Below, in pieces: positions 8,154 through 23,281 of a DNA stretch of 64,000 nucleotides. Position 1 is the stretch's first letter. Every line of letters starts with the position of its first letter. This DNA is from Novisyntrophococcus fermenticellae (lineage in GTDB: Bacteria; Bacillota; Clostridia; Lachnospirales; Lachnospiraceae). The translations under genes and the position numbers were made by a program. Below the pieces are notes generated by a model. That model had not been told where the DNA came from and did no database searches. It saw nothing but the letters and a program-made list of their open reading frames with translations. The stretch is taken from positions 2,790,001 through 2,854,000 of the forward strand of contig NZ_CP076458.1 of NCBI RefSeq assembly GCF_018866245.1. The letters run 5' to 3'.

Positions 8154-9074
8154 ATGAACCAGCTATTTAAGAAAAGTTCTTCGAACTGGATACGATATGA
8201 TAGATATGAATGGAAAACAGATGCCAAAGGTATTCTGTATATTACTCCCTGTAAAGATGCGAAACCTGATTTATACAATCCATTAAAGGACGCTGATAAT
8301 ATGGTACTGTCAGCCATCAATCTTGGTCTGCTTTGTATGAAAAGTGAAACCAGTAAAGAAACTCTGAAAACAGAACTCATGAATTTCATACAAAAATATG
8401 GTCTTCTCGGATTTATGACTGCATTACCTACTACACCAGAATTTATTACTTATGAATCAGTTTACTTACCACTGAACCATTTCATAAAAGAAGAATCCAT
8501 GTCCACAGATGAATACCTTTCCTATTTCTTTCCATTTGAACCTATTTCCTTTGCGAAAAGAAATCGAGAATCTATGTGGAACATAACAGATATTGACATG
8601 ATGGCAATTACAATGGCTCTGCAAAATAAACCGCAGGCAGTGACCATGAGTTTTCAAAAAGAATATGCAGAGCGATACGACTGGCTGGTGGAAGAATTTA
8701 AAGACTGGGCTTTTACCTTTGTAACAAGTTTCCTGTACTATCAGGACTTAGATATATTGGATGAAGACCAGAAACGACTTTACCGTCAGGGCATGGCTGC
8801 CTTTGGTGGAATTGCACCAACCTATCATGTGGAACTATTAGATCGACCAACGATTGTGTGGGATTTTCATTCCCTGCTCTTACAGATCCAGATGATGTTC
8901 AGCTTCATGCTGACCGATGAGAAATCTTCCATCAAGGTATGCAAGCATTGTGGTAAAGCATTTATCGCCAGCCGACCTAACGCAGAATTCTGTAGTCCGC
9001 AGTGTAAGAATCAGTACAATGTGTATAAGAGTAGAAGTAAAAAGATGGATGCGATGGATGAGGATGATGATTAG
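8154..9074 (+). CDS. Hypothetical protein with C-terminal CGNR-like zinc finger
   Basis: A 306-residue cytosolic protein with no membrane segment. The N-terminal 250 residues are mixed helical and not recognised. Near the C-terminus, CKHCGKAF, then RPNAEFCSPQCKNQYN forms a C-x2-C ... C-x3-C zinc site like that of CGNR/ABATE-type putative DNA- or RNA-binding proteins, followed by a basic then strongly acidic tail (MDAMDEDDD). It has its own start region after a hairpin and no operon partner closer than 187 bases. Genes like this are common cargo of clostridial integrative elements; the function is unknown. Confidence 0.6.
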   Translation: MNQLFKKSSSNWIRYDRYEWKTDAKGILYITPCKDAKPDLYNPLKDADNMVLSAINLGLLCMKSETSKETLKTELMNFIQKYGLLGFMTALPTTPEFITYESVYLPLNHFIKEESMSTDEYLSYFFPFEPISFAKRNRESMWNITDIDMMAITMALQNKPQAVTMSFQKEYAERYDWLVEEFKDWAFTFVTSFLYYQDLDILDEDQKRLYRQGMAAFGGIAPTYHVELLDRPTIVWDFHSLLLQIQMMFSFMLTDEKSSIKVCKHCGKAFIASRPNAEFCSPQCKNQYNVYKSRSKKMDAMDEDDD

Positions 9075-9261: not shown

Positions 9262-9888
9262 ATGAATGATGATATTTTGAAAAAAGATGGATTATCCATG
9301 GAAAAATTGGAAAAACTATCTTATCAATCCAAACTTGGTATTCGTTTAAAGAAGAATCTGCATTACTTTGATAAGGATGCACTCTTCACTGAATTAGAAG
9401 AAATTAACGAATGGTACGACCGTTGTGATTTTCTTCACGATATAGCAACCGATTATCGTGTAAAGAGTATTCAATCCGCATTTCTAAAATATGAACGGTA
9501 TTATCCAGATCATCAGGCCGGAAAAGTATTTAACGATATGCTCGGTTTTCGTGCATTATGTGATAATTATGAAGATGTTTTGTATCTTGGGGAAAATGAT
9601 AAGATACGAGTGGCGGATATGTCTCAGGGCAAGGCTCATGATGATGGGTATCGTGGTATCCATGTTTACTTTCAATTAAGCAGTATTCACTATCCCATCG
9701 AAATTCAATATAATACTTATTATGACAGACAGCTAAACAACTGGCTTCACAAATACGTTTATAAACGAAATTACCATAATAATATTGGATGTGTATTGCG
9801 AAAAGCCTTTGAATCTGGTAAAATCAGAACAGAACAAGAATTTAAGGAGGTGTTGCATCATGTGTTATCTGATTGCAAAGAAATTTAA
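9262..9888 (+). CDS. RelA/SpoT-like nucleotidyltransferase domain protein
   Basis: A 208-residue protein with the (p)ppGpp-synthetase fold signature: RVKSIQSAFLK at 66-76, then VFNDMLGFRALCD at 89-101, GYRGIHV at 129-135 and PIEIQY at 145-150 followed by W161. It lacks HD hydrolase, TGS and ACT domains, so it is a small stand-alone enzyme. Such proteins make alarmones, or in toxSAS systems make toxic (pp)pApp or pyrophosphorylate tRNA. The acidic residue before IQ (E147) and the conserved arginine/lysine/serine are present. The 3' end overlaps the next small gene by 29 bases, which suggests co-regulation. Confidence 0.7.
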   Translation: MNDDILKKDGLSMEKLEKLSYQSKLGIRLKKNLHYFDKDALFTELEEINEWYDRCDFLHDIATDYRVKSIQSAFLKYERYYPDHQAGKVFNDMLGFRALCDNYEDVLYLGENDKIRVADMSQGKAHDDGYRGIHVYFQLSSIHYPIEIQYNTYYDRQLNNWLHKYVYKRNYHNNIGCVLRKAFESGKIRTEQEFKEVLHHVLSDCKEI

Positions 9889-10302: not shown

Positions 10303-12126
<1,824 letters not shown>

Positions 12127-12146: not shown

Positions 12147-13121
12147 CTAATGAACGGCATTCATGTGAATGCCGAAGGAAATCCAAACGTTTGGATAACG
12201 CAGGTCGTGAATACGAATTCTTTTTACACCAGCCGCTTTCGAACCTCGATCCATTTCATGATGCAGATAACTTTTTGTAATGTTAAACAATCTCGTATGT
12301 TCATCGATTTTGTATATCATTCCAAAATAATCCTCCAATTCATTATAAAGAAATTCTGGTAGTTCAATCACACGATTTCCCTTGTCGGTCTTTGGTGTGG
12401 TGGTGTATTCAATCCCATCAATTCTTTGTACCTGCTTATCAATCTTTAATGTTCTCTTTTCTAAATTGATATCTCCACGCTCTAGTGCAAGCATTTCGCT
12501 CATTCGTACTCCTGTCCAATACAAAATCTCAAAGGCATAATATGAGATTGGTTTATCTTTGATTGCATCCGCAAATTTGGTATATTCTTCTTTCGTCCAG
12601 AACAACATTTCCTTTGCCTTTGCTTTCCCCATCTTTTTACCCTTGCTACAAGGATTCTTTGCCAAGTCATAGTAGCGGACTGCATGATTAAATATTGCCG
12701 TCAGCTGATTTTGAAGTGTTCGCAGATACGTCTAGGCATAGCCTTTATCATTTTCATCTCGCTTACTTAACAGTTCGTTCTGCCACTGTAAAATATCTGT
12801 AGGAGAGATTTCTGATAAACTCTTTTCTTCAAAATACGGTCTAATATGGGTATTGATGATATGAACCTTTGTCCTGTAGGTGTTCAGCTTAATCTGCGGT
12901 TTAATGTCGGAAAGATAAACATCAATAAAGACTCCAAATCCCATATTGATATCCTTACTTTTCTTTGCCAAAAAATCCCGCTCATATGCTAATGCATCCT
13001 TTTTGGTCTCAAAACCTCGTTTATCATGTTGTTTCTTTTTCCCCTGCCAATCGGTATAGCGCAGAGATACTCTCCAACGCTTCCCATCATAGCCATTCCA
13101 ATTATCTTTAAAAACTGACAC
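12147..13121 (-). pseudogene. Tyrosine integrase, stop codon and missing C-terminus
   Basis: Phage/ICE-type integrase starting at GTG 13121, one base overlapping the rep stop. The N-terminal AP2-like arm-binding domain (NWNGYDGKRWRVSLRYTDWQ) and core-binding domain are followed by an in-frame TAG at 12732-12734 (codon 130, between GYA and TYLRTLQ). The catalytic domain resumes in frame with arginine I (TGVRMSEML), lysine (TPKTDKG) and HDLR, but then departs from the family into an unrelated tail at about 12205, so the second histidine and the catalytic tyrosine are absent. It has two independent lesions and cannot be active. Confidence 0.85.
12155..12196. repeat. Two adjacent perfect palindromes
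   Basis: CGGCATTCA/TGAATGCCG (12155-12174) and ATCCAAACGTTTGGAT (12181-12196) lie 7 bases apart, exactly where the serine recombinase ends and integrase homology is lost. They may be a terminator, or the scar of an element end. Confidence 0.5.
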
Positions 13122-15541: not shown

Positions 15542-15580
15542 AATCACTTCTTATTTTTCAAAAAATAAGAAGTGATTTTT
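15542..15580 (+). terminator. Strong terminator after the XRE regulator
   Basis: A 17-bp inverted repeat (15542-15558 with 15561-15577, perfect pairing through AATCACTTCTTATTTTT) followed by T residues. Confidence 0.9.
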
Positions 15581-15809
15581 ACTAAAAGCACTGTTAAAGG
15601 CTGGTTTTCAGAAAAAAGACGTCCCTCTCTTGTATCTAACTTCTGTGTTTGATATATATTTAGAAGAAATTAACGCATTATTAACTGCATGCGGTTACGA
15701 AGAATTATTTCCAGGGAATCCCTATGATTGGCTTATTCTCTGTACATCTACTACAGACAATCCTATCGCTTCATTGAGAGATGCAATCGCACCAATTGAA
15801 TACTCTTAA
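15576..15809 (+). pseudogene. C-terminal remnant of an element gene
   Basis: An open frame of 77 codons without a start codon reads LLKALLKAGFQKKDVPLLYL, then LTACGYEELFPGNPYDWLIL and ends before TAA at 15807. The composition is protein-like and resembles the tail of large HTH regulators on clostridial islands, but the upstream part is missing: the preceding in-frame TGA lies inside the terminator of the XRE gene. It is read as a remnant left by deletion. Downstream, 15821-15859 forms a 12-bp hairpin (TTCTGATGGCAG/CTGCCATCAGAA); 15860-15975 shows only a short HTH-like scrap (LKEIAASLK) and no gene. Confidence 0.45.
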
Positions 15810-15975: not shown

Positions 15976-16785
15976 TTAAAATATTGAATCCCAAATCCCC
16001 TTAATTGCTGAACCCACTACAACTGCTGCACCAATTCCAACAGCTGCTGGAATCCATACTGGCGCTGTAGTAGTTGCTAGAGCTGTCGCAACTCCTGCGG
16101 AAACCACCGTTGCTGCTGCGCTTCCACCAGCTGCTGATATTCCACCGCCAACCGTTTCTTTTGCAACTCTACCAACAAATTCTTCACCATCAATTGTGCC
16201 TTCCAACAAATCTTTTCCTGCACTAATCGTTTCAATTCCACCTGAAATAACTCCTCCTGCAATACCCGAACTCCCAGCCATTTTTGCTAATGATTGTGCC
16301 GAAAGTTTTCCTCCAATTGTTTCCACCGCGATTCTGCTTGTATCAGCTGATGAAATACCGGTAGAAGTCATTTTCTGTGTCACATTAGTCCCTTTGCTCG
16401 CAAGATTCTCAACCGCTTTTTCATAAGCTTGTACTGTTTCATTTGTCCCCATTAACTTAGTGCCTGCATATTTTCCATTTGAAGCCTGCTTAATAGTCTT
16501 AGAAATTGACTGTGCTGTATCTTTCAATTGACTTCTACCAACCACGGTTCCGTTATTCATCAAAAGAACATCATCTCTAACAGCAGTTGTTGATTTCGAT
16601 AAAATACCTTTTGTCCCATTTACTAAATTTCTTGGGTTCATTGTTTGAGCATCTTTATACAATACTTCATGTACAATACCTTTCAATTGAGGGTTATTAC
16701 CTGCTCTCTCAAACGCTTCCATCCCAACTTTTGTTTCATATGTCTTTCTTGCTATTGCGGTTGCAGTTCCATAATTACTTTCCAT
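15976..16785 (-). CDS. Glycine/alanine-rich putative membrane-active protein
   Basis: A 269-residue protein of unknown family. The N-terminal 150 residues are soluble-looking (NGTKGILSKSTTAVRDDVLL, VVGRSQLKDTAQSISKTIKQ). From about residue 165 the sequence is a glycine-zipper-like, strongly hydrophobic G/A/S/V-rich region (GGGISAAGGSAAATVVSAGV and IPAAVGIGAAVVVGSAIKGI) able to form two or more membrane helices, as in pore-forming effectors or glycine-zipper proteins. Start ATG 16785 is chosen for GGAGGT 7 bases upstream. It follows the acidic mini-protein and DUF3825 genes in one direction. An effector role is inference. Confidence 0.55.
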   Translation of the reverse strand: MESNYGTATAIARKTYETKVGMEAFERAGNNPQLKGIVHEVLYKDAQTMNPRNLVNGTKGILSKSTTAVRDDVLLMNNGTVVGRSQLKDTAQSISKTIKQASNGKYAGTKLMGTNETVQAYEKAVENLASKGTNVTQKMTSTGISSADTSRIAVETIGGKLSAQSLAKMAGSSGIAGGVISGGIETISAGKDLLEGTIDGEEFVGRVAKETVGGGISAAGGSAAATVVSAGVATALATTTAPVWIPAAVGIGAAVVVGSAIKGIWDSIF

Positions 16786-16820
16786 TTTTGTTACCTCCAT
16801 CTTAAATTGATTTTTATTGT

Positions 16821-16867
16821 TCTTAACGATCGGGCTTAATAGCCCGCATCATTCATTTCCTGTTCCC
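16821..16867. repeat. Imperfect direct repeat, copy 1
   Basis: About 46 bases starting TCTTAACGATCGGGCTTAAT and ending TTCCTGTTCCC, covering the 3' end of the acidic mini-protein gene. Copy 2 is at 17053-17098. Each contains a short hairpin around the GGGCT...AGCCC core. Confidence 0.6.
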
Positions 16868-17018
16868 AGTTATCTGGTGTCTCTGTTCGACAGTCTAAAT
16901 TTCCATCACTGTCATACCAGTCTGTATATCCGTCCTCGTCATCGTATCCTGCGAATCTTTCTCCGTCAGAATCATTATTGCTCCAGTATCTGTCAGGTTC
17001 ATCAAATAAATCAAACAT
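16836..17018 (-). CDS. Acidic mini-protein (60 aa)
   Basis: A 60-residue protein very rich in D, E, N, Y and W (MFDLFDEPDRYWSNNDSDGE, later DWYDSDGNLD), predicted pI very low, no hydrophobic segment. AAAGGAGGAG stands 4-6 bases before ATG 17018. It lies between the DUF3825 gene and the glycine-rich gene, all leftward, with gaps of 89 and 50 bases. Its 3' end is repeated, degraded, at 17053-17098. It could be an immunity or antitoxin-like partner, a DNA mimic or a binding-site decoy; nothing in the sequence decides. Confidence 0.65.
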   Translation of the reverse strand: MFDLFDEPDRYWSNNDSDGERFAGYDDEDGYTDWYDSDGNLDCRTETPDNWEQEMNDAGY

Positions 17019-17052
17019 GCTTCTCCTCCTTTCAATTAGATAATTAATCTGT

Positions 17053-17098
17053 TTCTAACGATGGGCTAAATAGCCAATATTGTTCATATCCTGTTACA
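17053..17098. repeat. Imperfect direct repeat, copy 2
   Basis: TTCTAACGATGGGCTAAATA and the following bases to CCTGTTAC match copy 1 at 16821-16867 at most positions. Read on the minus strand it keeps codons like QDMNNIGY, resembling the QEMNDAGY tail of the mini-protein, so it may be the remains of a second tandem gene copy. Confidence 0.6.
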
Positions 17099-17107
17099 CC
17101 TCCTTTT

Positions 17108-18325
17108 TCACCATACTTTGTTATATAAAGACAACGCTGTTATCCTATCCTGCAAGTTATCATCATAAGGTAAGATTGTCTTAATTTCATAGAAGTCACC
17201 TGTCCTTCTTATCGCCATTACAAGTTCTGGGCTCTCACATAATGGGCTTTCAATATGTAATGGCATAAACCATGAAACCTTTCCACTCTTTCCTGAATAA
17301 GAAGCTTTTGCATATGAATGATCCCTATGTTGCATCCTGATTCCTCTTTCGAGTGCACTTATAAGCTGGCCAGCGATCCTTGCATCACTCTGCCCCTGTA
17401 TACAATCAGGGAATCTTTCCTTTCGTTGCTGAATAATATGCATCAAACAGTTCTGATTAATATCAAAATCATCAATTATTGGATTAAAGATTTCTGTTCC
17501 CGCATCAAAGAAATTGATTGGTTCTAGTTCCTTCGCTGACTGTTCTTTAGTAAATCCATTATTCAGATAATCCTGCTTGCTCTGAATAACTGATTCTGCA
17601 ATATACGTTTGATACTTTTCATAAAATCTGTATAATATTAGAAAGTCCTTCCCAAACAGATTCATCATTCCTGTATTTACGATTACAGATTTAATATTAT
17701 TAACAACATAGAATTCATCTCTATTCTGTGCTACTAACTGGCTCACTCTTGTTCCAATGATTTTGATATATCTGTCTAATCCCCAAATAGACTTCCAATT
17801 CGGAAAAAGGAGATTATCATAAACGTCTTTTGTCAACTCTTGAATATGTTCATCATTTCTTGCATATACTGCTTCAAAATCATACTTGTTTTCGTTTTTC
17901 ACAGTATCAACTTCCTCTTCTAGTCTTCCAGCATTTTGCAATCTATACTGTTCTTTAAATTTACTTAGATGACCACGTAACTTTCTTTCTTGACAAGAAT
18001 TTTTTCGGCACATTCCATTTACAAGATAGTCTGGAGTTCCTACAAAATATCCGCTATAATAATCACTTCTTTTTATCAGTGATATCATAACTGGTTTCTC
18101 AAAATCTGCTTTCATTCCTGTATCCAACCAAACCATATTGATCGTGGTATCATTCATATTCTTGATATTAAGATCATTATCTAGGTAATACTTTGTGCTG
18201 TCTAATTTTGAAATATGAGCTTCAACTCTATTCATATCCGGAATATGTCCGGTAATTCGATAAATTTCATCAGAGACCGCTTCTTCATCTGTTATTACAA
18301 ATATTTCATTAATTACTCTTTCCAT
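17108..18325 (-). CDS. DUF3825 domain protein
   Basis: A 405-residue cytosolic protein. The middle and end fit the DUF3825 family: YVVNNIKSVIVNTGMMNLFG around 205-225, later the FMPLHIESPLCESPELVMAI block and the family-like TILPYDDN tail. The N-terminal 130 residues are not recognised and contain a possible C-x4-C pair (MCRKNSCQ). DUF3825 proteins have no proven function; some are linked with RNA-binding or cold-shock domains. AGGAGGTG lies 5 bases before ATG 18325. It heads a leftward trio with the mini-protein and the glycine-rich protein, and is divergent from the STAND gene. Confidence 0.65.
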   Translation of the reverse strand: MERVINEIFVITDEEAVSDEIYRITGHIPDMNRVEAHISKLDSTKYYLDNDLNIKNMNDTTINMVWLDTGMKADFEKPVMISLIKRSDYYSGYFVGTPDYLVNGMCRKNSCQERKLRGHLSKFKEQYRLQNAGRLEEEVDTVKNENKYDFEAVYARNDEHIQELTKDVYDNLLFPNWKSIWGLDRYIKIIGTRVSQLVAQNRDEFYVVNNIKSVIVNTGMMNLFGKDFLILYRFYEKYQTYIAESVIQSKQDYLNNGFTKEQSAKELEPINFFDAGTEIFNPIIDDFDINQNCLMHIIQQRKERFPDCIQGQSDARIAGQLISALERGIRMQHRDHSYAKASYSGKSGKVSWFMPLHIESPLCESPELVMAIRRTGDFYEIKTILPYDDNLQDRITALSLYNKVW

Positions 18326-18447
18326 AAGAGCACCTCCTTATTTTTTGTGGTATAATGGTACTGAATTATTTATTCTCTATATCCTCTTTACAAGATTATA
18401 ATACTACTGATTTGTAACAACCTGAATGATATAGAATTGAACTTGTG

Positions 18448-18494
18448 TTGATGTCAATTCCCATCAAGTTCTTGACCAAAAATTGACGTCAATT
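18448..18494 (+). promoter_or_regulatory. Operator-like repeats before the STAND gene
   Basis: TTGATGTCAATT (18448-18459) and the perfect 14-base palindrome AATTGACGTCAATT (18481-18494) share the core TTGAYGTCAATT, spaced 35 bases. A TTGACC box lies just left of the palindrome at 18473-18478 and an A/T-rich minus-10-like stretch right of it. The arrangement suits a repressor site in the divergent intergenic region; the STAND protein itself has an N-terminal HTH-like region. Confidence 0.5.
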
Positions 18495-18528
18495 AATAAA
18501 ATAATTGAATATGTGGAGGGAGATTTTT

Positions 18529-20190
18529 ATGATCTTGAACTATGCAATACTACTTGAATTTTTGAATGACCAGAATGTACAAGGACAAGAAGTTGCCGAA
18601 TGGCTTGGTACCGTGCCGGAAACAATAAGCAGAATCAAGAATAACAATAAAAATATGATAAAAGGAATTGCTCCAGAAAATTTTTATATAAATGTATTCT
18701 GCAAAAAAGACTCTCTTAAAGATTATCAAGGCATAAAGTGTCTTTATTCTTTTCTTGAATCCAAAGACTGTATTACCGATTATATTCACAATGAATATTT
18801 AAATTATGAGAAAAAATATAAGATTGACAGTTCATCAGCTGCCAAAGACTTTTTAATGACTATATTAAGAGAGACATCATATAATAAAAATAAAGATGCT
18901 TCAGAATCTAAAAAAGCTAACCAACTAATTTCTGCAGTGCAAGAATCTACTGCTACATCAATACGCTTCAACAAATTTAAAAATCCGATTCAAAACAATA
19001 CCTTCTTTGGGCGAAAAAAAATGTTTGATGATATCCGTAGAATACTAGAAGAAGAAGGAACCTGTATTGTTTATGGAATTGGTGGATTAGGAAAATCCTA
19101 CTGTTCTTTAAAATATGCTTTGGAATATGCAAATGACTACAGTCAGATCCAACAGGTTATATTTTCAACAGACATCAAAAGCACACTATTAAAAATTCCT
19201 TTCAATGGACTTGATGAATCTCATCTGACCGAGGATGAAATATTAGAAAAGCGTTTTTCAATCTTAGCAACGTTTTCTGAAGATACTCTCCTAATCATAG
19301 ACAATATGGATATCATGCCTGCGGATAAAGATAATTATGAGCGATTAAAACAACTTTCAATGCATGTGATATTCACTACTCGTGAAACTCAAATTGATGC
19401 ATCTAAATTTCAGCTTCCGATCGAGCCCCTTTCTAAGGAAGAGCAGTTAGAACTATTTACACATTATGGGCAATTCAACATAACACCAGAAGATTTGCCT
19501 GCGTATTATAATCTTTTTGAAATGGTCCAAGGGCATACCTTGCTTTTAGAATTGATTGCAAAAACAATGGCCGCAGAAACCTTAACCCCAGAAGAGATGA
19601 CAGCAATACTGTATAGCCCTGAAGATGATGACATCAGTAAAATTCCTATTGAAAAGGACAATCAATACCAGCAGGAAAAAATGAATAAGTTTGTATCAAA
19701 ACTATTTGATACAAGCAAGCTTTCTGATCCACAAAAAGAAATCTTGATGAAATTATCATTAACTTCTATCAGTGGAATACGGCAACGCCTATTTAAGCAA
19801 CTGCTATCATGTGATAATTCAAATATAAACGCCTTAATAAGCCAAAGTTGGATAATACAAAATCGCCCTGGAAGTGCAGACTCATTTAAAATACATTTAC
19901 ATCCTGTAATCCGATCTGCAGTAGTTAACAATACGGAACCAGCAATTGAAAACTGCCATTCCTTTACATATAAGATAGTATCTTTATTAAAAGAAGCCCA
20001 AAATTCTATTTCCATCTGTGACAAAACAGACCTATGCGATATTATTGCTAATTCTAGCGATATGTTTTCTTTTGGCATAAAGGACATAGATCTTTTATTT
20101 GACATGGCACAGATTTTATGGGGCAATTTTTTCTATACTTATGCATACAAAGTTTACCTCATAGGAATATCAATCTTAAAGGAATTATAG
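18529..20190 (+). CDS. STAND (NB-ARC-like) NTPase with N-terminal HTH-like region, 3' end altered by an IS
   Basis: A signal-transduction ATPase of the NB-ARC/STAND class, often used in bacteria for regulation or phage defence. Residues 8-45 resemble a small helix-turn-helix (NVQGQEVAEWLGTVPETISR). The NTPase core has FFGRKK (159-164), Walker A GIGGLGKS (183-190), Walker B LLIIDNMD (254-261), sensor TTR (283-285) and a GLPL-like VQGHTLLLEL (333-342). The C-terminus begins a TPR-like helix pair and stops with KEL at a TAG created by IS insertion; removing the IS and one TTATA copy extends the frame by 18 residues to 21604. Start ATG 18529 has GGAGGG 8 bases upstream. Confidence 0.78.
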   Translation: MILNYAILLEFLNDQNVQGQEVAEWLGTVPETISRIKNNNKNMIKGIAPENFYINVFCKKDSLKDYQGIKCLYSFLESKDCITDYIHNEYLNYEKKYKIDSSSAAKDFLMTILRETSYNKNKDASESKKANQLISAVQESTATSIRFNKFKNPIQNNTFFGRKKMFDDIRRILEEEGTCIVYGIGGLGKSYCSLKYALEYANDYSQIQQVIFSTDIKSTLLKIPFNGLDESHLTEDEILEKRFSILATFSEDTLLIIDNMDIMPADKDNYERLKQLSMHVIFTTRETQIDASKFQLPIEPLSKEEQLELFTHYGQFNITPEDLPAYYNLFEMVQGHTLLLELIAKTMAAETLTPEEMTAILYSPEDDDISKIPIEKDNQYQQEKMNKFVSKLFDTSKLSDPQKEILMKLSLTSISGIRQRLFKQLLSCDNSNINALISQSWIIQNRPGSADSFKIHLHPVIRSAVVNNTEPAIENCHSFTYKIVSLLKEAQNSISICDKTDLCDIIANSSDMFSFGIKDIDLLFDMAQILWGNFFYTYAYKVYLIGISILKEL

Positions 20191-20302
20191 TGGCTCAGTT
20201 GTCAAGACAAAAATCTAAGATTTTTATAATGAACTGATATGGTGGATAAGTGACAAGGAGTATGGGGAAGGCAGTGGAACACCCCCCAGATCCATATATG
20301 CA

Positions 20303-21193
20303 TCAAGCTACATAGGGCAGTAGCATTGCCGGGTAGTAGCATTCAGCCGGTTTTTGATAGTCAAGGGCAGAATGACATCTTTCAAAATTATAAGTGAAAA
20401 TATATCGTCCGATAGCGGCTCTGGCTTCTTTGATATTGTTATATTGTGTAAGGTACGCTTCTTCATATTTGAAGCTACGAAACCAGCGTTCAATCATGAT
20501 GTTGTCAGCCCAACGGCTTTTCCCATCCATGCTTTGGCGAATTCCATTTTTCTTTAAGAATTCAATATATTGTTGACTTGTAAACTGACATCCTTGATCG
20601 GAATTTAAAATTTGTGGCTTTGCAACCTTAAAAGCCTTTTTCAAGGCATTGACAACCATTCGGGTATCAAGTGTATCATCGACTTCCCAGCCGACAATAC
20701 AGCGGCTGTACCAGTCGATTACAGCAGTCAGGTACAAAAATCCATGCCGGATGGGAATATATGTAATGTCAATCGACCAAGCCTGATTAGGCTTGTCTAT
20801 GACAGCATTGCGGAGAAGATAAGGGAATACCTTAGCTTGCTGCATCCGCTTCGAAAGGTTCATCTTTGGGTAGATTGGATGAATGTCCATTTCGCTCATG
20901 TAGCGGCGTGCTTTCCGGCGACCAACATGATAACCACGAAGCTTCAACTGTGCTGACATCTGCCTGGCACCCCAGGTCGGATTATCTGTGTGAAGGTGAT
21001 CAATGATCTCTTTACAAGCCAGTTCTTCCTCTGATACAGGCGTTCCTTTGTAATAAATGCTGGTGCGGTTGATATCCAGGAGCTTTGCCCCGACAGAAGC
21101 AGGTAATTCTTTAGTCGTCAAAAGGTTTTGGACTAAACTTACTCTCGTAGTCAGGTCCACAAATTTCTTCAGATTTTTTTTTGAGCCAGTCAA
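20303..21193 (-). CDS. IS3-family transposase OrfB (DDE catalytic subunit)
   Basis: Integrase-core transposase. An HTH_21-like segment (DINRTSIYY; NPTWGARQMSAQLKLRGYHV) precedes the rve domain with the DDE residues in SIDITYIPIRHGF, LNSDQGCQFTS and MIERWFRSFKYEEAY. The full frame begins at a TTG at 21193 inside orfA; a second TTG overlapping the orfA stop near 21127 is also possible. Production is expected as an OrfAB fusion by frameshifting at the A9 run at 21174-21182. Relative to orfA the frame is +1 (equivalently -2), not the usual -1 of IS3. Confidence 0.85.
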   Translation of the reverse strand: MTGSKKNLKKFVDLTTRVSLVQNLLTTKELPASVGAKLLDINRTSIYYKGTPVSEEELACKEIIDHLHTDNPTWGARQMSAQLKLRGYHVGRRKARRYMSEMDIHPIYPKMNLSKRMQQAKVFPYLLRNAVIDKPNQAWSIDITYIPIRHGFLYLTAVIDWYSRCIVGWEVDDTLDTRMVVNALKKAFKVAKPQILNSDQGCQFTSQQYIEFLKKNGIRQSMDGKSRWADNIMIERWFRSFKYEEAYLTQYNNIKEARAAIGRYIFTYNFERCHSALDYQKPAECYYPAMLLPYVA

Positions 21194-21458
21194 CCTGCAT
21201 GGTTAACTGACCAACCTTTTTGGCATACTCCGACTTCTCTTTGCGTTCTTCTGCAAGCTTATCTTTGAGGTTTTCCTCTCGCTTGTCGTCAAATGCTGCA
21301 GAAGCGTTGTTTAGGAATTCTTTCTTCCAGTTACGGAGTAAGTTGGGTTGAATATTATTTTCAGTTGCAAGGGTATTGAGATCTTTCTCTCCCTTAAGTA
21401 ACTCAATCACAAGGTCTGATTTAAATTTGGCACTAAAGTTTCTTCTTTGTCTGGACAT
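21111..21458 (-). CDS. IS3-family transposase OrfA
   Basis: A 115-residue DNA-binding subunit: HTH_8-type domain (FSAKFKSDLVIELLKGEKDL, then ENNIQPNLLRNWKKEFL) followed by a leucine-rich coiled coil ending in QVDWLKKKSEE. AAAGGATT precedes the ATG. It overlaps orfB by about 80 bases, with nine consecutive A on the coding strand inside the overlap. Confidence 0.87.
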   Translation of the reverse strand: MSRQRRNFSAKFKSDLVIELLKGEKDLNTLATENNIQPNLLRNWKKEFLNNASAAFDDKREENLKDKLAEERKEKSEYAKKVGQLTMQVDWLKKKSEEICGPDYESKFSPKPFDD

Positions 21459-21611
21459 AGCAATGAATCCTTTCTTTCATACTGATTTTAGTATATCAGA
21501 TTCATTAAAATCTGTCTGGGAAAGTGTCTTAATTTATGAGACCATTATATCACAAAGTTCGAGCTAAAGAAAAGACAGAAATACTATTATCAAAAATGCG
21601 ATAAATGTAAT

Positions 21612-21637
21612 AAGCCCTCTCTGTTTTGAGGGGGCTT
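21612..21637. terminator. Hairpin between the island and guaA
   Basis: AAGCCCTCTC pairs with GAGGGGGCTT around TGTTTT with one mismatch. Flanks are only mildly T-rich. It lies just after the reconstructed end of the STAND frame at 21604. Confidence 0.5.
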
Positions 21638-21693
21638 GAAGCAATTCTTAAATTCTCTTTATTTTTTTCATTCTGCTGACATTTTGCTGACGC

Positions 21694-21729
21694 AAAAACT
21701 GGGAAGTCGCTTATTTAGCGGCTTCCCAG
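21694..21729 (-). terminator. guaA terminator
   Basis: CTGGGAAGTCGCT (21699-21711) pairs with AGCGGCTTCCCAG (21717-21729); on the minus strand it is followed by TTTTTGCG. It is 11 bases beyond the guaA stop codon. Confidence 0.9.
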
Positions 21730-21739
21730 CGTTTCTAGG

Positions 21740-23281
21740 TCACTCAAACTCAATCGTAGCCGGTGGCTTCCCCGTGCAGTCATACAGCACCCGGTTCACT
21801 CCCTTGACTTCATTTACAATCCTGTTCGTTGCCTTATTCAAGACAGCCCATGGCAGCTCTGCCGCTTCTGCGGTCATGAAATCGCTGGTCAGCACCGCCC
21901 GAAGTGCAATTGCATAGTCATAGGTTCTCTCATCCCCCATAACTCCTACGGAGCGCATATTCGTAAGTGCTGCAAAGTACTGTCCCAAATCCTTATCGCA
22001 TCCGGCCTTCGCTACTTCTTCCCGGTATATGGCATCAGCCTCCTGTACAATCCGTACCTTTTCAGCCGTAACTTCTCCGATGATTCGTACACCAAGTCCT
22101 GGACCCGGGAATGGCTGGCGGCTTACCAGATACTCCGGAATACCGAGCTCACGGCCAGCTTTCCGGACCTCGTCTTTAAAGAGCATTCGTAAAGGTTCAA
22201 CGATTTCCTTGAAATCCACATAATCAGGCAGCCCGCCCACATTGTGATGAGACTTAATCGTAGCAGATTTTCCAAGACCTGATTCAATTACGTCGGGATA
22301 AATCGTTCCCTGAACCAGAAAATCCACCGTTCCGATTTTCTTAGCCTCTTCCTCGAAGACACGGATAAATTCCTCACCGATGATTTTACGCTTCTCCTCC
22401 GGCTCAGTCACTCCTTTTAGTTTCGCATAAAAACGGTCCTGTGCGTTAACACGGATGAAGTTCAGATCATAGGTGCCTTCAGGTCCGAATACGGATTCTA
22501 CCTCGTCCCCTTCGTTCTTTCTCAGAAGACCGTGATCCACGAATACACAGGTCAGCTGTTTTCCGACTGCTTTAGCCAGCATAACCGCTGCAACAGAGGA
22601 ATCCACCCCTCCTGAAAGCGCACAGAGCACTTTTCCGTCTCCGATTTTTCCGCGGATTTCCTGAATGGTGCTTTCTACAAAAGAATCCATCTTCCAGCTT
22701 CCCTGACATGCGCAGACTTTATATACAAAATTAGAAAGCATCTTCATACCTTCCTGTGTGTGCATAACCTCCGGATGGAACTGGACGGAATACAGCTTCT
22801 TTTCAGGTAATTCCATGGCTGCAACCGGGCATACCGGAGTGGTTGCTGTGATTTTAAATCCTTCCGGTGCCTTTGAGATATAGTCGGTATGGCTCATCCA
22901 GCAGATTGTTTTCTCAGAAACGCCTTCAAAGATGACGGATGTGTTATCTATATCCACTTCTGTCTTGCCGTATTCGCTGACCGGTGCAGTCTCTACCGTG
23001 CCGCCCAGCAGGTATGACATCAGCTGGGAGCCGTAGCAGATACCCAGAATCGGAATACCTAATTCAAAAATTTCCGCACCGCATCTTGGAGAATCTTCAC
23101 CATAGACACTGTTCGGTCCGCCGGTAAATATGATCCCTTTCGGGTTCATTTCCTTTATCTTCTCCAGAGACATTGTATAAGGATGTACTTCGGCATATAC
23201 ATCGCACTCCCTTACACGACGTGCAATCAACTGATTATACTGACCGCCAAAATCCAGAACGATAATCATTTCTCTTTTCAC
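21740..23281 (-). CDS. guaA: GMP synthase (glutamine-hydrolysing)
   Basis: Converts XMP to GMP with ATP and glutamine. The N-terminal class I amidotransferase has the catalytic cysteine in GICYGSQLM and the histidine in FHPEVMH; the ATP pyrophosphatase domain has LSGGVDSS and the dimerisation domain ends PPATIEFE. Length (513 aa) is normal. GTG 23281 is the start, with AGGAGG 8 bases before; an ATG 4 codons on is possible. The usual last residues are PPATIEWE; F for W at the end is of note because the 3' end of guaA is a known integration site for islands, and an accessory region abuts here. Confidence 0.95.

What the first reader, a model, noticed from the sequence alone, without database searches (positions are those of the whole stretch)
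15976..20190. Possible undescribed defence cassette: STAND NTPase, DUF3825 protein, acidic mini-protein and glycine-zipper-like protein beside guaA
Seen: a STAND/NB-ARC ATPase (18529-20190) is divergent from a three-gene leftward set (17108-18325 DUF3825, 16836-17018 acidic 60 aa, 15976-16785 with a hydrophobic G/A-rich tail). Known: STAND ATPases are common phage sensors, and membrane-active effectors are a usual output; guaA 3' ends host islands. Inferred: the set may act as sensor, signalling enzyme, inhibitor and pore. I do not recognise the combination from described systems.
Basis: partly seen in the sequence, partly recalled or inferred. Interest (0 to 1): 0.75.

Follow-up and report, generated by a model that had tools for sequence, protein, structure and literature searches.

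The report
Sensor-broken STAND and two-nuclease cassette
Beside guaA in an unnamed, likely Clostridia-type genome lies a small gene island whose nearest relatives pair an NB-ARC (STAND) ATPase with a likely RNA-cutting enzyme and a likely membrane-anchored DNA-cutting enzyme, probably an anti-virus defence; in this genome a mobile element has cut off the end of the ATPase gene, so this copy is probably disarmed.

Summary
STAND, DUF3825 and the glycine-rich protein recur together in Ruminococcus torques; a Lachnospiraceae genome has a kinase-STAND, DUF3825 and an analogous zipper protein; a third genome has a kinase-STAND, an NYN RNase and the glycine-rich protein. Two functions must be re-read. 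The 'pore' is a predicted PD-(D/E)XK (restriction-type) nuclease with a hydrophobic glycine-rich tail: its RDD..QxKD pattern stands in 119 of 120 listed homologues, with a weak structural match to EcoT38I. DUF3825 is predicted to be a RelE/colicin D-like (BECR-fold) nuclease. I propose a (kinase-)STAND switch that releases an exchangeable RNase and a membrane-tethered nuclease against invaders. A 59-aa scrap of a second partner gene remains at 15630-15809. DUF3825 alone is no marker: only 2 of 18 other DUF3825 loci carry the set. The acidic mini-protein is real but rare, and was not found in 14 other loci. None of the four proteins matches a PADLOC model, and no paper that I found describes the combination. 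Nothing was tested on phage.

The parts
15630..15809 (+). 59-aa remnant of the C-terminus of the ~400-440 aa 'NPFDWLI' partner protein that accompanies kinase-STAND genes elsewhere
   Evidence: 44% identity over 48 aa to the L022 partner, E 8e-14 for that single comparison; profile hit 15576-15806 E 3.1e-10
15976..16785 (-). Predicted PD-(D/E)XK nuclease core (residues ~9-158) with C-terminal hydrophobic glycine/alanine-rich tail
   Evidence: invariant HE, RDD, RxQLKD in 21 sequences; RDD..QxKD in 119 and HE in 117 of 120 listed homologues; AF2 core mean pLDDT 77 and EcoT38I as best match; KD19 maximum 2.05 in the tail
16836..17018 (-). 60-aa acidic protein (20 D/E, 3 K/R), function unknown
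   Evidence: 3 homologues at 69-90% identity; composition; no match in 14 other loci
17019..17107 (-). Degenerate repeat of the 3' end of the acidic gene plus its GGCT..AGCC palindrome, suggesting a lost tandem copy
   Evidence: local alignment score 64 against a maximum of 48 in 500 shuffles of one side
17108..18325 (-). DUF3825 protein, predicted BECR-fold (RelE/colicin D-like) nuclease
   Evidence: Pfam 1.6e-11; invariant H296, R301, R304, E380, K382, T383 in 21 sequences; fold rows
18448..18492 (.). Two TTGAYGTCAA palindromes in the divergent promoter region, possible operator
   Evidence: TTGAC/GTCAA half-sites 4 against a shuffle mean 0.60 here and 4 against 0.80 in the R. torques intergenic region
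18529..20185 (+). HTH-NB-ARC STAND ATPase, 3'-truncated (TPR half missing); last codons and stop come from the IS
20186..21549 (.). IS3-family insertion sequence, 1364 bp (transposase ORFs 21111-21458 and 20303-21193 on the minus strand), 7 places in the genome
   Evidence: rve, HTH_Tnp_1; family name recalled
21740..23281 (-). guaA, chromosomal flank

Best explanation
This is the remnant of a likely mobile, probably anti-phage, STAND-controlled two-nuclease system: the STAND ATPase would sense an invader through its tetratricopeptide arm and release a predicted RNase (DUF3825) and a predicted membrane-anchored PD-(D/E)XK nuclease, but here an IS3-family element has cut the ATPase gene and its arm is gone, so the copy is likely inactive. 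Shown directly: the recurrence of STAND + DUF3825 + glycine-zipper protein in R. torques, of kinase-STAND + DUF3825 + an analogous zipper protein in a Lachnospiraceae genome, and of kinase-STAND + NYN protein + zipper protein in a third genome; the invariant nuclease-type motifs; the IS truncation; the remnant partner gene. Predicted from folds and motifs: REase fold of the zipper protein and BECR fold of DUF3825. Inferred: sensing by the TPR arm, release of the nucleases by NB-ARC oligomerisation, membrane tethering by the tail, and the phage-defence role. The HTH at the STAND N-terminus may also bind the palindromes between the divergent genes (inferred).
Confidence: 0.5

Rival explanations
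1. Pore model: the glycine-zipper tail would insert and form a membrane pore on STAND activation, the N-terminal domain serving only as a regulatory or nucleic-acid-binding part.
For: Hydrophobic Gly/Ala-rich tail in the three homologues examined and in the L003 analogue (KD19 maximum 1.89-2.05).
Against: Strict conservation of the RDD and QLKD motifs and an E..D..QxK series in the L003 protein, which is not detectably homologous, argue for a catalytic core; Mrr and NERD proteins beside the L033 STAND.
Confidence: 0.2
2. Interbacterial or plasmid-borne toxin with immunity: the zipper nuclease would be an exported toxin and the acidic 60-aa protein its immunity partner.
For: An acidic, DNA-mimic-like small protein gene sits just upstream of the nuclease gene; a repeat suggests a duplicated small gene.
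Against: No acidic gene was found in L002, L003 or L022 although zipper proteins are present; no export domain matched in Pfam for the window protein or five relatives; no match in plasmids; a STAND gene at each of the zipper loci read (window, L002, L003, L022).
Confidence: 0.1
3. Transcription-regulator model: the HTH-STAND protein would be a MalT-like activator of a metabolic or stress operon, not a defence sensor.
For: N-terminal HTH-like segment (weak HTH_19 hit in L002, E 0.075), palindromes in the divergent region, MalT-like TPR hit in R. torques below its cut-off.
Against: Its neighbours are predicted nucleases, not metabolic enzymes; the related loci carry a protein kinase in front of NB-ARC; the gene is rare (1 of 295 genomes at E 1e-40).
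Confidence: 0.15
4. The truncated STAND still works as a short, constitutively controlled regulator and the cassette here is functional.
For: Walker A GIGGLGKS, LIIDNMD and FTTRE motifs are intact; the three leftward ORFs are open.
Against: The repeat half is missing, the partner gene is a 59-aa scrap, and no second STAND match at E 1e-40 is in the genome.
Confidence: 0.15

Closest known systems
Avs/AVAST and other STAND (NLR-like) anti-phage ATPases (PMC12931631: search listing and abstract start only; details recalled)
   Same: STAND ATPase as invader sensor, with nuclease output in many members (recalled)
   Different: Effectors are separate genes here; N-terminus is an HTH (window, R. torques) or a protein kinase (L003, L022); no PADLOC hit for the window STAND
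Predicted NTP-dependent conflict systems of Kaur et al. 2020 and the Death/TRADD-N follow-up (PMC7159879, PMC8195603; passages found by search terms)
   Same: STAND NTPases and other NTPases coupled to exchangeable REase, RNase and kinase effectors
   Different: DUF3825 and NYN do not occur in the main text of the first; I saw no MoxR-vWA or EAD part in the proteins given to Pfam, but did not scan every neighbour
ptuXYZ operon (Gerdes 2025, PMC11980606; abstract, outline and sections 26-27 read)
   Same: ATPase + nuclease + BECR-fold RNase as a three-gene putative defence operon
   Different: PtuA-like ATPase, DUF262 nuclease and PIN-YoeB protein instead of STAND, REase-zipper and DUF3825
PD-T4-6 kinase and the MADS kinase mad6 (PADLOC; mad6 named as a kinase from recall)
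   Same: Kinase part of the L003, L022, L031 and L033 STAND proteins matches PD-T4-6 (best 9.4e-19, 1e-14, 8e-16, 7.8e-11); L031 also mad6 3.5e-15
   Different: The match is to the kinase part; the window STAND has no kinase and no hit
CoCoNuT type IV restriction operons (PMC11090510; two passages read)
   Different: McrBC-type GTPase systems; no STAND in the passages seen

Membership tests
STAND NTPase (NB-ARC) | P-loop NTPase with Walker A and B and the NB-ARC profile | tested here: met
   NB-ARC 2e-5, 24.5 bits against a cut-off of 23.5; GIGGLGKS, LIIDNMD, FTTRE
STAND NTPase (NB-ARC) | C-terminal superstructure repeats (TPR) that act as sensor | tested here: not met
   Window protein stops at residue 543 of the R. 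torques relative, before the TPRs found there; lost at the IS
Avs (AVAST) systems | Match to curated models | tested here: inconclusive
   No PADLOC hit for the window STAND at E 1 or E 10; how many Avs models that library holds was not checked, and the sensor half is missing
PD-(D/E)XK (restriction-type) nucleases | Conserved E...D...(D/E/Q)xK motif in an alpha-beta-beta-beta-alpha-beta core | tested here: met
   (Q in place of D/E at the third site)
PD-(D/E)XK (restriction-type) nucleases | Profile or clear fold match to a known family | tested here: inconclusive
BECR-fold (RelE/ParE/colicin D) nucleases | Fold match over the domain | tested here: inconclusive
BECR-fold (RelE/ParE/colicin D) nucleases | RNA cleavage | not testable with these tools
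   needs an enzyme assay
Type II toxin-antitoxin pair | Cognate antitoxin gene conserved next to the toxin | tested here: inconclusive
   The acidic gene, the only candidate considered, has no tblastn hit below E 0.35 in 14 related loci; a diverged version could be missed
IS3-family insertion sequence | Two transposase ORFs (HTH + rve), 3-bp target duplication | tested here: met
   5 of 6 other copies show a 3-bp duplication, the window copy and one other do not
Anti-phage defence system | Protection in a phage challenge | not testable with these tools
   no experiment possible

The most novel reading that the evidence does not exclude
A new, modular STAND-controlled immune system of Clostridia: a STAND ATPase, with either an HTH or a protein kinase in front and, with the kinase form, a dedicated 'NPFDWLI' partner, fires two nucleases at once, an exchangeable RNase (DUF3825, the first function for that family, or NYN) and a restriction-fold nuclease pinned to the membrane by a glycine zipper so that it meets incoming DNA at the entry point.
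Probability: 0.35. Interest if true: 0.7.

Novelty: new variant of a known kind. Interest (0 to 1): 0.5.

Why it matters
It would add a STAND immune module whose effectors are separate, swappable nuclease genes, give DUF3825 a testable function as a BECR-fold RNase, and propose a nuclease anchored to the membrane by a glycine zipper. It also corrects a false lead: the copy in this window is not the one to test, because its sensor gene is cut.

Tried and rejected
Plasmid tblastn with the zipper and DUF3825 proteins: no match. Viral-contig scans with both alignments: 24 and 30 pattern hits, none confirmed. PDB sequence search with both profiles: none for the zipper, one meaningless hit (E 1.9) for DUF3825. 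PHROGs: none for the zipper and acidic proteins; weak hits for DUF3825 (E 0.012) and the STAND protein (PhoH-like, 5.7e-4); DUF3825 relative P0133 matches phrog_11623 of unknown function at 2.5e-10. NCBIfam: STAND matches FxSxx_TPR at 5.3e-11 but far below its cut-off. Pfam scan of five zipper relatives: no family at cut-off, although PF26373 is precomputed for some relatives; its name could not be looked up. Promoter and terminator scans: no more sites than shuffles. Rfam: only the tRNA. R. torques STAND against the 21550-21745 flank: no remnant of the lost half. Zipper search in the order of G349: only G349 itself, 1 of 16. Literature: DUF3825 0 papers; combinations of STAND, NB-ARC, kinase, NYN, REase, BECR and glycine zipper gave no description of this set in the listings and passages seen. 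A pure pore and a toxin-immunity pair were considered and ranked as rivals.

Full report
1. What is there. The four ORFs are at the stated places: zipper protein 15976-16785 (-), acidic protein 16836-17018 (-), DUF3825 protein 17108-18325 (-), STAND ATPase from 18529 (+). Pfam gives DUF3825 1.6e-11 and NB-ARC 2e-5; the other two match no family at cut-off. PADLOC gives no hit at E 1 for the four and NCBIfam none at cut-off. The region is A+T-rich (30-41% G+C per kb at 10-20 kb against 42-51% at 21-42 kb). To its left lie a serine recombinase in two pieces (10315-11232, 11287-12126), a tyrosine integrase in two pieces (12147-12665, 12732-13121), DUF6017 and an HTH regulator, so it reads as a decayed mobile island.

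2. The STAND gene is cut. A DNA search of the own genome found the 20186-21549 element at 7 places. Flank comparison gives copies with the same two ends, which are imperfect inverted repeats; 5 of the 6 other copies show a 3-bp target duplication, while the window copy (and one other) shows none. The ORFs match HTH_Tnp_1 and rve, hence IS3-like. The STAND reading frame leaves its own sequence at 20185 and ends in a stop inside the IS. The R. torques relative is 926 aa and has TPR-type matches from about residue 543-560 on; the window protein aligns with residues 1-543 only, at 56%. No second match at E 1e-40 was found in the genome, and no remnant right of the IS. The missing target duplication and the missing 3' half suggest a deletion next to the IS (inferred).

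5. Conservation of the set. The single genome-contig scan returned 15 DUF3825 loci; 3 more came from the genome search, where 4 of 246 genomes including the own matched. L002 (R. torques) has HTH-STAND divergent from DUF3825 and zipper protein, as in the window, and next to a type III-like methylase gene (name recalled). L003 has partner, kinase-NB-ARC-TPR, DUF3825 and zipper analogue. The other 16 have no match to the STAND, partner, NYN or zipper queries at phmmer E 1e-6; L005 (4.3 kb) and L006 (8.0 kb) lie on short contigs. The zipper search found 1 of 246 genomes in the order (own), 2 of 391 in the class (own and G349) and 1 of 16 around G349; the samples overlap. G349 (L022) has partner, kinase-STAND, an NYN protein and the zipper nuclease on one strand. 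The homologue lists share longest-contig lengths 3420321 (own), 142606 and 39088, so two more DUF3825-zipper pairs are probable, but 117 of 120 zipper proteins share none. HTH-STAND: 1 of 295 genomes, the own (E 1e-40); kinase-STAND: 4 of 295 and 2 of 250 (E 1e-60).

6. The kinase-STAND module. Of 7 kinase-STAND loci read (L003, L022, L031-L034, L045), 5 carry the ~400-440 aa partner; L034 (3.2-kb contig) and L045 (gene 0.5 kb from the contig start) do not. REase-type genes lie beside 3 of 7: L003 and L022 by motif, L033 by Pfam (Mrr_cat 2.4e-27 and NERD 1.1e-11); L031 ends right after the STAND gene, L034 is a short contig, and in L032 and L045 I saw none. The window keeps a 59-aa scrap of the partner's C-terminus (44% over 48 aa; E 3.1e-10). 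So the island once held at least part of that module. Whether the HTH-STAND replaced a kinase-STAND is open.

7. Acidic protein. 20 of 60 residues are D or E. Three homologues; 1 of 246 genomes, the own; no hit below E 0.35 in 14 related loci. It is a real but rare gene. Its 3' end is repeated upstream (score 64 against a shuffle maximum of 48). An inhibitor or immunity role is untested.

8. Possible operator. Two TTGAYGTCAA palindromes lie 36-81 bp before the STAND start and occur nowhere else in the window; two or more copies of TTGAYRTCAA arise in 11 of 100 shuffles of the whole window, but the two lie 35 bp apart. Half-sites TTGAC/GTCAA number 4 in the window's intergenic region (reached in 4 of 1000 shuffles) and 4 in the R. 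torques region (6 of 1000). The motif was chosen from the window, so only the R. torques count is an independent check, and the full palindrome is not there. Self-regulation by the HTH is an inference.

9. How it would work. An invader cue binds the TPR arm; the NB-ARC core exchanges nucleotide and oligomerises (recalled for STAND ATPases); directly, or through the kinase in other loci, it frees the RNase and the tethered nuclease, stopping translation and cutting nucleic acid at the membrane, with dormancy or death of the infected cell. Only the gene set, motifs and truncation are shown. In this genome the trigger half is lost and the partner is a scrap, so the effectors are likely silent passengers.

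10. Known or new. No paper in the searched open library holds the word DUF3825. Combination searches found no description in the listings and passages seen. The design belongs to the known theme of STAND-coupled nuclease systems, hence 'new variant of a known kind'.

Noticed in passing
window 9262-9888: Small RelA/SpoT-domain protein (Pfam 3.6e-06) beside a zinc-ribbon-like 306-aa ORF (8154-9074, no Pfam family) inside the mobile region; could be a small alarmone synthetase.
   Followed up: no
window 10315-12126 and 12147-13121: A serine recombinase and a tyrosine integrase are each in two pieces in the same frame with a stop between; the element looks decayed.
   Followed up: partly
L002 4980-5250 (R. 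torques ATCC 27756): The C-terminal ~90 residues of the 926-aa R. torques STAND ORF do not look like TPR and may be read-through into foreign sequence, so that copy too may be altered at its 3' end.
   Followed up: no
L033 4503-5561 and 10469-11284: A kinase-STAND with its partner is flanked by a NERD protein and an Mrr_cat protein, another nuclease pair for the same kind of switch.
   Followed up: partly
L007 8681-10915; L009 6071-7195; L015 5472-6530; L023 1285-2271 and 8148-9137: Distant DUF3825 genes sit beside a KaiC-like ATPase (L007, Pfam 1.1e-06) or WYL-type regulators (L009, L015, L023; WYL named from recall), suggesting other accessory systems that use DUF3825.
   Followed up: partly
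L023 6429-7616: Only the N-terminal domain of the DUF3825 profile (positions 2-155) matches this 395-aa protein; its C-terminal half is unrelated, so that domain may move on its own.
   Followed up: no
L006 1884-3129: The DUF3825 gene of a deer-rumen Saccharofermentans contig is split over two frames.
   Followed up: no
window 26-30 kb: Genes reading like a bacterial microcompartment/diol-utilisation cluster beside guaA (named from the translations, recalled).
   Followed up: no
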